A stretch of 64,000 bases of DNA. Origin: Lactobacillus sp. Sy-1. GTDB taxonomy: Bacteria; Bacillota; Bacilli; Lactobacillales; Lactobacillaceae. The stretch lies in contig NZ_JACCIU010000001.1 in assembly GCF_019303535.1 (NCBI RefSeq), positions 1,364,001 through 1,428,000 on the forward strand, read 5' to 3'. The notes beneath the pieces were generated by a model, which made no database searches, had not been told where the DNA came from, and worked only from the letters and a program-made list of their open reading frames with translations. The position numbers and the translations under genes are program-made. Below are positions 15,959 through 53,245 of the stretch, in pieces; position 1 is the stretch's first letter, and each line of letters begins with the position of its first letter.

Positions 15959-16915
15959 ATGAAAAAATCAATTATTTATTTAGCAACCCTTTCTACTTTA
16001 GTAGTGGGGAGCAGTGCAATTGTTCACACGGTTAACTCTAATTTTACTTTTAGCTACGTTGCACACGCTGGCGTTCCTAATCGCTCAATGTTAGTTGCAC
16101 CAATTTCTGATAACGATGCTAAATACGTTACGTTTTATAACGGCCAAGACGGTAGTCCTGAACTAACGGATGAAGGTTCAAACTACTACCAAGATGTGAT
16201 TGGTGGCAACGGGACTTTAGTCCGTTATGCCATTCGTAGTACCGCACCCTATGTTTTAAAGGTCTATGATAGTTCTAGCCCCAGTGAGCCAGTTAATAAT
16301 GACAACTACACCGAGGCTAGCGAAGCCAATGATAAAGATTTCTTAGACACCCTCTATCAATTTACATTTATCCCTAAGCCGGAATACGCTAGCACGATGC
16401 AGCCAATCACAGTATCCTTTATTGCTTTCGGTGCCGATGCTAATGGAGTAAACGACTTTTATAGTAAGTATGTCCAAAGTCCAAACACCTATTCGATCAA
16501 AGATTTAAAGACCGATGTTTTGAACATGGATGCTAGTTCATATTCACAAGTTGGATTTGGAACTGGAACGCCTGACTCACAGTCTGAGGACCGTAATAAA
16601 TTTGTAAATGAATTGAATATTATTTTAAAGAACTACCTAAATGAAAACGTTGATACTAACGATACCCCATCAACGGCTCCTAGCACTTCAGCAAGTAATA
16701 GTTCTTCAAACAATGCTAATAGTGATAATAGTAATAACAAAACCAAGGATAAAAAGGCTCAACGAAGTAAAGTCAAGCAAGCTAAGCAGAAGGTTAAGAA
16801 TACTCAAAAAAACGTCAAAAAAGCTAAAAAAGATGGCGGTAAAAAGCTAGCTAAGGCTGAGCGCGCATTGAAGCAAGCTAAAAAACAATTGTACAAGTTA
16901 GAAAACCATTCATAG
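15959..16915 (+). CDS. Secreted protein with lysine-rich C-terminal tail
   Basis: The 318-residue protein has a Sec signal peptide with a likely cleavage after AHA near residue 37. A globular region of about 190 residues of unknown family follows, then a Ser/Asn/Thr-rich linker (about 235-265) and a ~55-residue lysine-rich, probably coiled-coil tail (KQAKQKVKNTQKNVKKAKKD region). There is no LPxTG motif or membrane anchor. Such a basic tail may hold the protein to wall teichoic acids electrostatically, which is an inference. The same architecture recurs in the protein at 20400-21683, on the other side of the reverse transcriptase. The AGGTGA site supports the start. Confidence 0.82.
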   Translation: MKKSIIYLATLSTLVVGSSAIVHTVNSNFTFSYVAHAGVPNRSMLVAPISDNDAKYVTFYNGQDGSPELTDEGSNYYQDVIGGNGTLVRYAIRSTAPYVLKVYDSSSPSEPVNNDNYTEASEANDKDFLDTLYQFTFIPKPEYASTMQPITVSFIAFGADANGVNDFYSKYVQSPNTYSIKDLKTDVLNMDASSYSQVGFGTGTPDSQSEDRNKFVNELNIILKNYLNENVDTNDTPSTAPSTSASNSSSNNANSDNSNNKTKDKKAQRSKVKQAKQKVKNTQKNVKKAKKDGGKKLAKAERALKQAKKQLYKLENHS

Positions 16916-17030: not shown

Positions 17031-17446
17031 ATGGCATGTATCACTTCATACTTCGCTAAAAGTGGGGGAAAAGATATAAGTTTCAAATATATACAGGAAT
17101 CGATCAACAAACTGGTAAGCAAAAGCAAACAACCAGAAGAGGTTTCAAAACAAAAAAGGAAGCCTCATTAGGAGTTTCTAGGTTAACAGCTAAAATATCT
17201 AGTGGAGAATCTGATAGCGATAATAACATCACATTTGAAAAAGTATATAAACAATGGTATCAGGCTTACATTAATACTGTTCGTGAATCTACTTATGTCA
17301 GAACATACGTAATGTTTAGAAATCATATTCTAAAGCACTTTGGAAATAAGAGAATTCGTACTATGTAAAATAAATGAAATTCAAAATGCTGTTAAAAATT
17401 AAATTATGGAAAATGGAACTGCAACCCGTCAGATGAACATCAGATG
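17031..17446 (+). pseudogene. Decayed tyrosine recombinase (phage-type integrase)
   Basis: An excellent AGGAGG site precedes the ATG at 17031, but the frame breaks after about 12 codons near the G-run at 17061-17066. The shifted frame reads WGKRYKFQIYTGIDQQTGK, then TTRRGFKTKKEA, then FEKVYKQWYQAYINTVRE and FGNKRIRTM. This is the arm-binding and core-binding N-terminus of a phage or ICE integrase. A second shift then gives KINEIQNAVKN, and further stops follow. The catalytic domain is absent. Two frameshifts and the truncation mark a dead gene of the ssrA-linked element. Confidence 0.85.
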
Positions 17447-17482: not shown

Positions 17483-17511
17483 TTGATTTCAAACTCGATT
17501 CTCTGTATATT
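17483..17511 (+). promoter_or_regulatory. Promoter of the RT-associated RNA
   Basis: TTGATT (17483-17488) and TATATT (17506-17511) are separated by 17 bp and would start transcription near 17518. The next gene start is over 300 nt away, so the transcript would begin with the structured RNA. Confidence 0.6.
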
Positions 17512-17517
17512 AGATAT

Positions 17518-17809
17518 ACTTAATGCAATAGTACTTCCAGCGGTACTAGTTTTCCTTCGGGAATGAAGCGTTGAACTACTTTAATTTTAGTAAGTCATTA
17601 TGTCGATCTTAATGATATTAAATTTAGAAGGTGCGAAAAGCTTTCGTACCCGGATAGCGAAATTGATTATCGGAGCTCCACGGGCTGGAATTATTTTGAT
17701 TAATAATTGTGCCATAGCATTAGACACTGTCAGCTACTTTTTGCGATTCTATCCGTCGTATGTTGACAGATGATTTCCGATGGGCCTGCATTTTGTGGGC
17801 CTTTTTTTA
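17518..17809 (+). ncRNA. Structured non-coding RNA preceding the reverse transcriptase
   Basis: About 290 nt without a credible gene carry many helices: TAGTAC/GTACTA (17529-17548); TTCC/GGAA closed by a UUCG tetraloop (17552-17563); TCATT/AATGA (17595-17615); a 9-bp helix GGTGCGAAA/TTTCGTACC with a 3-nt loop (17630-17650); a long-range helix CGGATAG/CTATCCG (17651-17657 with 17749-17755); AATTATT/AATAATT (17689-17708); and CTGTCA/TGACAG (17727-17732 with 17764-17769). The RNA ends with a terminator hairpin GGCCTGCA/TGTGGGCC plus T7 (17783-17808). The RT ribosome binding site follows at once. It may be the template or cofactor RNA of the RT, by analogy with DRT2, DRT9 and retrons. Ends are estimated. 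Confidence 0.65.
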
Positions 17810-17828
17810 TTTTCTAGGGGTGAATAAT

Positions 17829-19316
17829 ATGGATAAAACAAAGTCGAAGCCAAACATCGGTCAAAAGTGGTATAAGCATTTTGATCGGATTTTAAGTGAC
17901 AAAACCGCTAACCAGTTTTACGAATCCGTTGTACTAGATGCGGATAAAGTAGTTAAGTACCGATTTCACCCGTTCATTTTACGTTATCAAGAAAGCAAGA
18001 TTTACCATCGGGCCCAGCGGAATCACCGTTCTTACGTTGATTATAAAAAGCGCCCGATTTCATTGGTTGCTCACCACGATGAGTTAGTTTATTCGCACTA
18101 TTCAGCTACGTTAAACGACAGCTACGAAGATTATCTTGACCGAAACCACCTCTTCAAAGTTCCAACCGCCTACCGGAAACGACTTAAGGGGTCTAACATC
18201 ACCGCCGCCAAGGAAATTTTTGATGCAATCGTGAACCTGGATGACTGTTGGATCATCAAGGGCGACTTCAAGCATTTTTTCGACAACATTAGGCATTCAA
18301 TTTTACGCAAGAACCTTTGTAAGGTTCTAAACGTCACGAAATTACCAGCCGATTGGGCGGCAATTTTTAAATCATTGACCAAGTACCGGTATGTCAAAAA
18401 AACCGAGCTAGAACCCGCTATGAAGGTAGTTTTTCCTGAGCGTAACAAAAGTGATTACTACACCAAAAGTCACCAGGAGCTAGGCACCTTGCTGCATTCT
18501 GGACAGGTAAAATTGTACGGTCCAAACCAACTAGGCATCCCCCAAGGTACCGCCATCAGCGCCGTCCTCGCAAACATCTACATGGTTGAATTAGATGCCA
18601 AGATTAACCAACTAGTTGCCGCAGCTGGCGGAATCTACCGCCGCTACTCCGATGACTTCGTGATCGTTATTCCTAAGGCCGCCCATCAAACAGAAGCCGC
18701 ACTAGATGATTTTATCACTACCGTTAAGACAGTTTGTAGCACCGCGACCAAGTTGACGATTGAAACGCATAAAACTAAGGTGTTTAGCTACCGTTCAGTT
18801 GACGGGATTAACCGCAAGTTCGATCACCAGTTCCACCCCGCATGGTTTGACTACCTGGGTTTCTTATTCAACGGCAAAGTTGTTAGAATGCGTCCTAAAT
18901 CAATTTATAAGTTCCACTATAAAAGTAAGAAAATGTTGCGCCACATCCGCAAATCACAAGTCGATCGGTTCAAGTTCGAAAACCAAAAAAGTTTCGATTG
19001 GAACGTTCACTTTCACAAGGTCTGGTTTAAAAACGCAATTGTGGATTGTGAAAATTCGGAATTTAAGCAGCTGCTAGTTAAGACCCGCATCAATAAGGAT
19101 CGGCAAATCCTATCCCATAACATTCCACAAAAAAGGATTGCCACTAAAATGTACCTCACCCACAGGCGGTATGGCGAAAAATACTCAATGGTGGGTTACG
19201 CCAAACGGGCTCAGCGAATAATGAGTTCCCAAAATAATAAGTACCAGGTCCAAATTTGGCAACCAATTAGTGATCAGATTACCAAGAATCAGAGGTATAG
19301 GAAAGGTCTGTTTTAG
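17829..19316 (+). CDS. Reverse transcriptase, stand-alone, candidate antiphage RT (unknown group)
   Basis: The 495-residue protein has all core RT motifs: motif A DFKHFFDNI near residue 145, motif B GIPQGTAISAVLANIYM near 240, the catalytic box YRRYSDDFVIVI near 280 (YSDD, a variant of YxDD), and motif E FDYLGFLFNGKVVRMRPKS near 340. About 140 basic C-terminal residues without a recognised domain follow. It lacks the maturase/HNH parts of group II intron RTs and has no retron-type VTG landmark that I can see. The ATG at 17829 has AGGGGTGA upstream; an in-frame start at 17760 would run through the RNA terminator. Its setting (structured RNA upstream, integrase remnant, ssrA) fits the UG/DRT class of defence RTs. 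Group membership cannot be settled by eye. Confidence 0.88.
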   Translation: MDKTKSKPNIGQKWYKHFDRILSDKTANQFYESVVLDADKVVKYRFHPFILRYQESKIYHRAQRNHRSYVDYKKRPISLVAHHDELVYSHYSATLNDSYEDYLDRNHLFKVPTAYRKRLKGSNITAAKEIFDAIVNLDDCWIIKGDFKHFFDNIRHSILRKNLCKVLNVTKLPADWAAIFKSLTKYRYVKKTELEPAMKVVFPERNKSDYYTKSHQELGTLLHSGQVKLYGPNQLGIPQGTAISAVLANIYMVELDAKINQLVAAAGGIYRRYSDDFVIVIPKAAHQTEAALDDFITTVKTVCSTATKLTIETHKTKVFSYRSVDGINRKFDHQFHPAWFDYLGFLFNGKVVRMRPKSIYKFHYKSKKMLRHIRKSQVDRFKFENQKSFDWNVHFHKVWFKNAIVDCENSEFKQLLVKTRINKDRQILSHNIPQKRIATKMYLTHRRYGEKYSMVGYAKRAQRIMSSQNNKYQVQIWQPISDQITKNQRYRKGLF

Positions 19317-19415: not shown

Positions 19416-19431
19416 TACTAGAATCAATTTA

Positions 19432-19889
19432 ATCATCAAACTTCAATATTCTAGTCTGAAAATCATGCTCACTTAATTCAATCACTCTAACTCCACGATC
19501 AAGCGATCCGTAACAGTTATACCCGGTTACATTACCATAATCCAGGTAAACCCCATTATATTGAGCAGTAAAGTTATTATCATGATCATGACCAGTAAAT
19601 AGTGCCTTAACGTTTCCCTTTCTTAAGACACTATATAAAAAGCCAGAGTTTATTTCAGACGAGCATACTGCTTCATCATTGACTCCAGAAATAATATTTT
19701 TGAGCCGCAAGTTTGTACTCTGGAAGCGGAATGTGTAGAAACCCTAAATCTAAATTAGATGCATTCCGAAATAATTGTTTGTTCATTATTAGAAGTTTTA
19801 CCTCCTTGAGAACTACTACTGGAACAACCTGCAAGAGTCATAGCGATAGAAAGTCCTGAGACCAAAGTTAAAACTTTATGTTTGAACAT
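19432..19889 (-). pseudogene. Broken secreted metallophosphoesterase lipoprotein
   Basis: The ATG at 19889 (AGGAG upstream) begins a good lipoprotein signal peptide with lipobox LAGC and a Ser-rich linker, but the frame stops at about 19755 after only ~45 residues. Other frames then give LGFLHIPLPEYKLAA and, after another shift, the C-terminal end GNVKALFTGHDHDNNF with NGVYLDYGNVTGYNCYG. That is the GHDH metal-binding end of a purple-acid-phosphatase-like phosphoesterase. The middle, including the N-terminal metal motifs, is deleted. It is a remnant with at least one large deletion and one frameshift. Confidence 0.8.
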
Positions 19890-20399: not shown

Positions 20400-21683
20400 A
20401 TGAATCCAATTAGAAAACAATTCTTTAAGAAAAGCAAAAAAATTACGTTTGCCATAATTGCAATCTCTTCAATTTACACAACTACAGCGTGGTCTTTTGA
20501 ACATCCCGTCATTTCATCAGCAAACACGATTGATATTAATAATAATGGCTATGGTAATGTTGCTAATAGTGCGGCTAGTGCTGCCGATAGCTATAATAGT
20601 AAAATTCACGGCCTTAGTGATTTCCCTTATATGCTAAGTGGAGATTTATCTGATGCAATGAAGTTTAATGAAGAGGCGCAAAGCGCTGCCGAAAGAGCTA
20701 ATAATCCAGGCGCTAGTGATAGTGAGAAATACTCCGCAGCTTATACTGCTCTTTTCAAATTAAAAATTTTAGAAAATCTTTATAACAGAGATTCACAAAC
20801 GATCCAAAATCTAAATGAAGCGGGTGGGATTGATGCTAATAGATTTTATCTAGAACGTGGTGGTATATACAGCTTTATTCCTCATAGTGCTGTCGAGGTC
20901 TATTCAGATGGTAGAAAAGCTGAAGAGGTAGAAATCACTAACCAACTCGATCAAATCAAAAATAAATTACAAAGTGAGTCTAAAGTCAATAGTCAAAGTA
21001 GTAGTGTAGAGAATAACTCATCTACAAACCATTCCGAATTCAATTACCAACCTAGATCCGCTGTTAGTTCATATTCAGAGTATGATGATTTCGACTATCA
21101 AAGTTCCTCAGCCCCTGCATCTTATGTTTACCAAAATACTAGTAACGAATGGACTTCTCACAGCAATCCAGCTACTTCGTTACAAAATCACTCCAATCCT
21201 GATAATTTCATGAACAACCAATATCAACTAAATAACAACTTCATGAATACTACAAACCAACCAAATCCTAATGATTCTACAAATAACCAAAATCAAACAA
21301 ACGTTACCAATCCAGCTCCATCAAATAACGAAGCCCAATCAGATAATCATTCATTAACTCCGCAGCCATCTAATTCTGCAACCCAACATTCAAGTACAAG
21401 TCAAGTTAATAGCAAAGCTAGCGTTGATACCCATAGTTCTGGAAATCGTAAACAGATAATTAAAGATGTTAACAAATCTAAAGCTAAGCAGCAGACAAAA
21501 GCTAAGCAACAAGCAAAGTCGAAACAGAATGCTATTAACAGTCAAATTAAAAAGTTCCAAGGTCAACTTAATAAGTTAAAACAACAACTTAAGAAGGCCA
21601 AGGGTAAGCAACAATCAAAAAAGATTAACGCCCAATTGATCAAGATTACCCAAAAGATTCAAAATCTAATTAAACAAAGATAA
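20400..21683 (+). CDS. Secreted Asn/Ser-rich protein with lysine-rich coiled-coil tail
   Basis: The 427-residue protein has a signal peptide (basic start, hydrophobic core to about residue 40), an Ala/Asn-rich helical segment of about 150 residues, a long low-complexity Asn/Ser/Pro/Gln linker (about 195-345) and a ~75-residue Lys/Gln-rich coiled-coil tail. No LPxTG or transmembrane anchor is present. Its layout parallels the 318-residue protein at 15959-16915, although the globular parts do not obviously align. AGGTGG supports the start. It is AT-rich like the rest of the island. The function is unknown; a surface-associated or biofilm role is only a guess. Confidence 0.82.
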   Translation: MNPIRKQFFKKSKKITFAIIAISSIYTTTAWSFEHPVISSANTIDINNNGYGNVANSAASAADSYNSKIHGLSDFPYMLSGDLSDAMKFNEEAQSAAERANNPGASDSEKYSAAYTALFKLKILENLYNRDSQTIQNLNEAGGIDANRFYLERGGIYSFIPHSAVEVYSDGRKAEEVEITNQLDQIKNKLQSESKVNSQSSSVENNSSTNHSEFNYQPRSAVSSYSEYDDFDYQSSSAPASYVYQNTSNEWTSHSNPATSLQNHSNPDNFMNNQYQLNNNFMNTTNQPNPNDSTNNQNQTNVTNPAPSNNEAQSDNHSLTPQPSNSATQHSSTSQVNSKASVDTHSSGNRKQIIKDVNKSKAKQQTKAKQQAKSKQNAINSQIKKFQGQLNKLKQQLKKAKGKQQSKKINAQLIKITQKIQNLIKQR

Positions 21684-52985: not shown

Positions 52986-53040
52986 TTTAAATCCAATTTT
53001 AATGACACAAAAAGCATCCACTCATTGTGTCCGATTAAAT

Positions 53041-53180
53041 TCTTCTCCCATCCAGACTATCACTGTCGGTCTCAGATTTGCACTGAGTCAACTAGCTAGG
53101 AACCCTAACTAGGTCACGGACTTTAGACATTCACTGCCTATCACCGTCGGTCGGGAATTTCACCCTGCCCCGAAGAATAT
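53041..53180 (-). promoter_or_regulatory. FMN riboswitch (RFN element)
   Basis: On the minus strand the conserved RFN blocks appear in order: CTTCGGGGCAGGGTGAAATT, CCCGACCGACGGT, AGTCCGTGACC, TTGACTCAGTGCAAATCTGA, GACCGACAGT and GGATGGGAGAAG. FMN binding should favour the downstream terminator and shut off ribDEBAH. Confidence 0.97.
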
Positions 53181-53245
53181 GCTATTCAACTTTAAAATAA
53201 GTATATTATAGCTTCTGTTAAATCGCAACTAGAATGTTCTCAAAA

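What the first reader, a model, noticed from the sequence alone, without database searches (positions are those of the whole stretch)
17483..19316. Reverse transcriptase paired with a ~290-nt structured RNA: candidate ncRNA-guided defence system
A stand-alone RT (YSDD box, GIPQG motif, basic C-terminal extension) is preceded by its own -10/-35, a dense set of helices including a 9-bp hairpin, a UUCG tetraloop and a long-range 7-bp closing helix, and an intrinsic terminator ending 21 nt before the RT start. This order (promoter, ncRNA, terminator, RT) is the organisation known for DRT2 and DRT9 antiphage RTs. The cassette sits beside a dead integrase downstream of ssrA. The elements are seen in the sequence; the function is inferred. 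I know of no characterised lactobacillar member with this RNA.
Basis: partly seen in the sequence, partly recalled or inferred. Interest (0 to 1): 0.85.

Follow-up and report, generated by a model that had tools for sequence, protein, structure and literature searches.

The report
DRT2 antiphage locus missing neo
A lactobacillus chromosome carries an intact DRT2-type antiphage reverse transcriptase and its folded RNA, but the stretch of RNA that should be copied into the toxic 'neo' gene has shrunk from about 150-180 letters to 38 and can no longer encode the toxin, so it is either a disarmed defence system or a new toxin-free version.

Summary
In detail: an intact 495-aa RT (17829-19316) is preceded by promoter, structured RNA and terminator. 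The RT is DRT2 (PADLOC Drt2 7e-110; the next family scores 86 bits against 366). It lies in a 100/100-supported clade with five lactobacillar relatives, one of them on a 22.8-kb plasmid-like contig of the same genome. The RNA is the DRT2 ncRNA: the 5' handle, pseudoknotted 3' scaffold and promoter position recur in all six, and helix H2 is rebuilt with different sequences. It is a template, not a guide. New here: all five relatives carry a neo-type template antisense to the RNA (153-180 nt, multiple of 3, stop-free, hydrophobic, promoter formed across the jump junction). The window's template zone is 55 nt against 170-200. It keeps a jump repeat (AAATT) at the conserved positions, giving a 38-nt unit (TCGACA-16-TTTAAT across the junction; 0 of 5000 shuffles match), but 38 is not a multiple of 3 and every frame has stops. 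Most likely this is a DRT2 system whose neo template lost about 115-145 nt internally, leaving an RNP that cannot make Neo. A functional neo-less variant making 38-nt repeats is not excluded. No closer relative was found, so the case rests on one genome.

The parts
17060..17416 (+). Remnant of a tyrosine-recombinase (phage) integrase, N-terminal third only, frame-shifted and with stops
   Evidence: Pfam Arm-DNA-bind_4 and Phage_int_SAM_3; tblastn with intact phage integrases
17483..17511 (+). Promoter of the ncRNA: TTGATT-17-TATATT
   Evidence: Scan; -10 sits 6 nt before the RNA start motif as in all five relatives (sequences)
17518..17574 (+). 5' handle of the DRT2 ncRNA: closing helix P1 (17520-17526/17568-17574), inner hairpin Hp1 (17529-17534/17543-17548), UUCG hairpin
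   Evidence: Same architecture in six loci, 7/7 pairs in P1 in each
17575..17629 (+). Template zone, 55 nt (170-200 nt in relatives); no neo
17583..17587 (+). Jump repeat A (AATTT), 8 nt after P1 (7-8 in relatives)
17621..17625 (+). Jump repeat A' (AATTT), 4 nt before HpA (5-6 in four of the five relatives); unit between A and A' is 38 nt
17601..17606 (-). -35-like TCGACA of the promoter that would form across the jump junction
17617..17622 (-). -10-like TTTAAT of the same junction promoter (spacing 16)
17630..17650 (+). Hairpin A (HpA), first element of the 3' scaffold
   Evidence: Paired in 6/6 loci
17651..17781 (+). Pseudoknotted 3' scaffold: H2 17651-17657/17749-17755, H3 17669-17674/17776-17781, H4 17727-17732/17764-17769; H2 crosses H3
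   Evidence: Each helix re-formed in relatives with changed sequences
17782..17809 (+). Intrinsic terminator of the ncRNA
17829..19316 (+). DRT2 (UG2) reverse transcriptase, 495 aa, GIPQG and YSDD present, no frameshift or internal stop

Best explanation
This is a DRT2 antiphage locus whose RNA has lost the neo gene by an internal deletion of the template. Shown: the RT is an intact DRT2 enzyme; the ncRNA keeps its promoter, 5' handle, pseudoknotted scaffold and terminator; the template between them is 55 nt instead of 170-200 nt; the two ends that set the jump are still there and define a 38-nt unit with a weak promoter across the junction; that unit cannot be read as an endless ORF in any frame. 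Inferred: the RT still binds the RNA, primes on the template end and, after infection, could run around the 38-nt unit to make concatemeric cDNA, but no toxic repetitive Neo protein can follow. The classical defence step is therefore most likely lost here (a Neo-null allele, probably fairly recent because RT and RNA are otherwise intact), while the plasmid-like contig of the same strain carries a copy with a full neo template.
For: RT family: PADLOC Drt2 366 bits, next 86; best solved relatives are Klebsiella Drt2 chains, 1e-40. Tree: window inside a 6-row clade at 100/100, next to the plasmid copy. RNA: P1, Hp1, HpA, H2, H3, H4 pair in all six loci (one unmatched pair in Hp1 of C3; H3 of C3 needs a gap); H2 strands are CGGATAG/CTATCCG (window), GAACAAG/CTTGTTC, GATCTAA/TTAGGTC, CGGTCAG/CTGACCG, each pairing 7/7 with its own partner and 2-7 with others'. 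Neo in relatives: all five have jump repeat + 17-18 nt-spaced promoter across the junction + open unit of 153-180 nt, multiple of 3; 17 of 26 loci overall against about 6% of shuffles per locus. Window: no such solution. Template 55 against 170, 186, 183, 198, 200 nt. Positioned A/A' of 5 nt plus junction promoter: 0 of 5000 shuffles; relaxed to 4 nt, 7 of 5000. Unit 38 nt, stops in all frames. RT keeps 60 of 62 family-invariant columns and differs at 11 of 149 subclade-invariant columns, within the range of its relatives, 4-12.
Against: RT, handle, scaffold, promoter and jump repeat all look intact, which is unusual for a dead system unless the loss is recent. N = 1: no closer homologue was found to date or confirm the deletion. 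The unit boundaries come from sequence rules, not from cDNA reads. Promoter-like matches are common in AT-rich DNA; one (TCGACA-17-TAAAGT) is present even without a jump. The NCBIfam Drt2 equivalog cut-off is not met, though all five lactobacillar members scanned also fall short of it.
Confidence: 0.6

Rival explanations
1. A functional neo-less DRT2 variant: the RT makes long arrays of 38-nt repeats whose effect does not need translation (titration of RNA polymerase by dense promoters, nucleotide drain, or the DNA itself), convergent with DRT9 or DRT10.
For: RT, handle, scaffold and A/A' repeat are maintained; A and A' have both changed from the relatives' sequences yet still match each other at the conserved positions. 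Short-unit repeat synthesis is known in DRT10 (9-nt units, PMC12632851).
Against: Single genome; the -10 (TTTAAT) lacks the conserved A; the pattern is also what a recent internal deletion would leave behind.
Confidence: 0.2
2. A canonical neo is present but laid out differently, for example with a unit that runs into the scaffold or that gains bases at each jump.
For: A 48-codon hydrophobic antisense ORF runs from the scaffold into the template zone (17590-17733).
Against: It overlaps HpA and the pseudoknot, which must stay folded in DRT2 (PMC12039810); it is not conserved in relatives; every frame of the 38-nt unit holds a stop, and the main frame stays closed with one extra base per jump.
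Confidence: 0.1
3. An ordinary, fully working DRT2 defence system.
For: RT and RNA architecture.
Against: No neo in any frame; stop codons in neo abolish defence in KpDRT2 (PMC12039810, PMC11100668).
Confidence: 0.05
4. Group II intron, retron or Abi RT with an unrelated leader RNA.
For: Generic RVT_1 match.
Against: Drt2 366 bits; group II maturase 86, retron St85 54; DRT2-type RNA.
Confidence: 0.02

Closest known systems
DRT2 of Klebsiella pneumoniae (KpDRT2; PMC12039810, PMC11100668)
   Same: RT without extra domains preceded by a ~280-nt ncRNA; 5' handle, template, pseudoknotted 3' scaffold; jump repeat; relatives of the window rebuild a sigma-70 promoter across the junction and encode an antisense stop-free neo
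   Different: RT longer (495 against 425 aa) and divergent; jump repeat AAATT instead of ACA; template unit 38 nt instead of 120; no neo
Lactobacillar DRT2 clade found here (C3 copy, L005, L006, L007, pEM7)
   Same: 43-48% RT identity over the alignment, same promoter spacing, handle, scaffold and jump geometry
   Different: They have 170-200-nt template zones with neo of 51-60 codons; the window has 55 nt and none
DRT10 / UG17 (PMC12632851)
   Same: Short A-B-A' template that would give short tandem repeats
   Different: RT belongs to DRT2, not UG17 (83 bits against 366); different RNA; DRT10 is protein-primed and tripartite
DRT9 (PMC12483538, PMC12489045)
   Same: RT plus upstream ncRNA
   Different: Poly-U template and poly-A product; the window has neither, and the RT scores 66 bits to Drt9

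Membership tests
DRT2 (UG2) RT | RT sequence matches the Drt2 profile above all other RT groups | tested here: met
   PADLOC Drt2 7e-110, next RT_UG39 8e-25
DRT2 (UG2) RT | NCBIfam Drt2 equivalog cut-off (390 bits) | tested here: not met
   297 bits; five lactobacillar relatives 284-313, Photobacterium drt2 567: a divergent clade; this is an annotation threshold, not a biological defining feature
DRT2 (UG2) RT | Intact catalytic motifs (YxDD, GIPQG) | tested here: met
   YSDD, GIPQG; invariant columns
DRT2 system | Adjacent upstream ncRNA with 5' handle and pseudoknotted 3' scaffold | tested here: met
   Six loci, covarying helices, H2 crosses H3
DRT2 system | Repeat pair that lets the RT jump from template end to start | tested here: met
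   AAATT at conserved positions; sequence differs from the ACA of KpDRT2
DRT2 system | Sigma-70 promoter formed across the repeat junction | tested here: inconclusive
   TCGACA-16-TTTAAT, 10 of 12 matches but without the conserved A of the -10
DRT2 system | Repeat unit a multiple of 3 with one stop-free frame (neo) | tested here: not met
   38-nt unit, stops in all frames; met in all five relatives. Hence filed as a DRT2-family RT and ncRNA, not as a complete DRT2 defence system
DRT2 system | Concatemeric cDNA, Neo protein and phage defence | not testable with these tools
   Needs experiments
Group II intron RT | Matches group II maturase profile above cut-off | tested here: not met
   86 bits, cut-off 300
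DRT10 (UG17) | RT of the UG17 group | tested here: not met
   83 bits against 366 for Drt2

The most novel reading that the evidence does not exclude
A natural DRT2 system that works without Neo: its RT rolls around a 38-nt RNA unit and the resulting short-repeat, promoter-bearing DNA is itself the effector.
Probability: 0.18. Interest if true: 0.85.

Novelty: new variant of a known kind. Interest (0 to 1): 0.5.

Why it matters
DRT2 is the textbook case of a gene built by reverse transcription. Tang et al. could predict the RNA but had trouble finding Neo in divergent DRT2 clades (PMC11100668). Here a divergent lactobacillar clade is predicted to encode neo with its own jump repeat and a recurrent Cys-Tyr-Asn junction, which gives new systems to test in Gram-positive hosts. 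The window copy is a natural knock-out of neo in an otherwise intact RT-RNA complex, with a neo-bearing copy in the same strain. It lets one ask directly whether repeat synthesis without Neo does anything.

Tried and rejected
Rfam at gathering and relaxed thresholds: no match to the RNA. The first idea that the 5' handle had been replaced by the integrase remnant was wrong: aligning with C3, L005 and pEM7 showed the handle is intact. MAFFT misaligned the scaffold, so helices were matched by hand and checked by script. Closer homologues: none in 398 family, 395 order, 399 class, 21 and 8 congeneric genomes, nor in phages, plasmids, genome contigs or viral contigs at more than about 50% identity; nothing by DNA beyond a 26-nt match in one of 60 relatives. 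ssrA attachment site: no second copy.

Full report
OBSERVATION. The window holds an intact 495-aa RT (17829-19316) with GIPQG and YSDD. Upstream lie a promoter (TTGATT-17-TATATT, 17483-17511), a structured stretch and an intrinsic terminator. By energy alone the fold is modest (z -2.0), and Rfam has nothing. An N-terminal integrase remnant precedes it; ssrA has no second attachment copy.

THE RT IS DRT2. PADLOC Drt2 scores 366 and 240 bits, the next group 86; group II maturase 86 bits with cut-off 300, retron St85 54 with cut-off 235. The best solved relatives are Klebsiella Drt2 chains. The NCBIfam equivalog cut-off (390) is missed at 297 bits, but five lactobacillar relatives also score 284-313 while Photobacterium drt2 reaches 567, so this is a divergent DRT2 clade. 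25 of 398 Lactobacillaceae genomes hold a match. The tree puts the window in a 100/100 clade of six with L007, the C3 copy, pEM7, L005 and L006. The window's own genome has a second copy on contig C3. C3 is 22.8 kb with ParA, replication and single-strand-binding genes and a type II restriction-modification set, hence probably a plasmid. The C3 RT runs across the contig ends and is one base short there, so its intactness is not proven.

THE RNA IS THE DRT2 RNA. In all six loci the -10 sits 6 nt before the start motif AC(T/C)(T/C)A (7 nt in C3, by eye). A handle (P1, Hp1) is followed by the template, hairpin HpA, and helices H2, H3, H4, with H2 crossing H3 as a pseudoknot. All helices pair in every locus apart from one pair in Hp1 of C3 and a gap in H3 of C3; H2 is re-made with different sequences. 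KpDRT2 has the same order: 5' handle, template, pseudoknotted 3' part bound to the thumb (PMC12039810). The pair counts come from a hand-made structural match of six sequences and carry no covariation p-value.

NEO IN THE RELATIVES. In KpDRT2 neo is antisense to the RNA, the unit is a multiple of 3, and a promoter forms across the jump (PMC12039810, PMC11100668). A scan for a jump repeat of at least 4 nt, junction promoter spaced 16-18, and an open 3n unit gives hits in 17 of 26 lactobacillar loci, against about 6% of shuffles per locus. All five clade members hit: C3 153 nt, TTGAAA-17-TATAAT; L005 168 nt, TTGACA-17-TACAAT; L006 165 nt, TAGACA-17-TATAAT; L007 180 nt, TTTAGA-18-TATAAT; pEM7 165 nt, TTGACA-17-TATAAT. 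The predicted Neo is hydrophobic and crosses the junction as Cys-Tyr-Asn in most (Trp-Tyr-Asn in pEM7). Loci that miss the strict rule mostly still show a long hydrophobic antisense ORF.

NEO IS MISSING IN THE WINDOW. From P1 to HpA there are 55 nt, against 170, 186, 183, 198 and 200. The only pair that meets the rule is AAATT, 8 nt after P1 and 4 nt before HpA, where relatives have 7-8 and 5-6 (pEM7 has an extra hairpin before HpA). It gives a 38-nt unit with TCGACA-16-TTTAAT across the junction. Positioned repeats of 5 nt occur in 85 of 5000 shuffles, with the promoter in 0; with 4 nt plus promoter in 7. The unit is not a multiple of 3 and all frames have stops; in the main frame the stop TAA would remain even if one base were added per jump. 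The rules were taken from the relatives before the final test, but the search for a short unit was prompted by looking at the window, so these shuffle counts are a guide rather than a strict p-value.

MECHANISM. Shown: intact RT, conserved RNA scaffold, shortened template, no neo. Inferred: the ancestor had neo, since all five clade mates do; an internal deletion of roughly 115-145 nt removed the coding middle and kept both ends. The RNP may still make 38-nt-repeat cDNA but cannot make Neo, so the classical defence is probably lost. The RT shows no sign of decay, which points to a recent loss or to a Neo-independent role; one genome cannot separate these.

NOVELTY. A new variant of a known kind. 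The library searched held no paper found on a lactobacillar DRT2 or a neo-less DRT2, though only open-licence papers were searched and supplements were not readable.

Noticed in passing
L003:1-600 and L002 (G000 contig C3, minus strand, across contig ends): Second DRT2 copy in the same strain on a plasmid-like contig, with a full 153-nt neo template (TTGAAA-17-TATAAT); its RT reads one base short at the contig ends, perhaps an assembly edge.
   Followed up: partly
L040:15982-19565: The same contig carries two type II DNA methyltransferases and a restriction enzyme next to each other, so it is a defence-rich plasmid.
   Followed up: partly
window 17590-17733, minus strand: A 48-codon hydrophobic antisense ORF runs through the scaffold into the template remnant; not seen in relatives.
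   Followed up: partly
L027 and L029 (G256 C32, about 5.7 kb apart): One Lactobacillaceae genome has two similar DRT2 loci in a row, the RT at L029 much shorter than the one at L027.
   Followed up: no
L028: A DRT2 RT with an in-frame TAA early in the gene, while its RNA and long antisense ORF look intact.
   Followed up: no
window 15959-16915 and 20400-21683: Two secreted-looking proteins with lysine-rich C-terminal tails flank the cassette on both sides; no convincing Pfam family.
   Followed up: no
window 19429-19710, minus strand: ORF that resembles the end of a metallophosphoesterase (GHDHDN motif), without a Pfam match; with the broken integrase it suggests a decaying insertion site.
   Followed up: no
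window 53036-53181, minus strand: FMN riboswitch, well above the Rfam cut-off.
   Followed up: no
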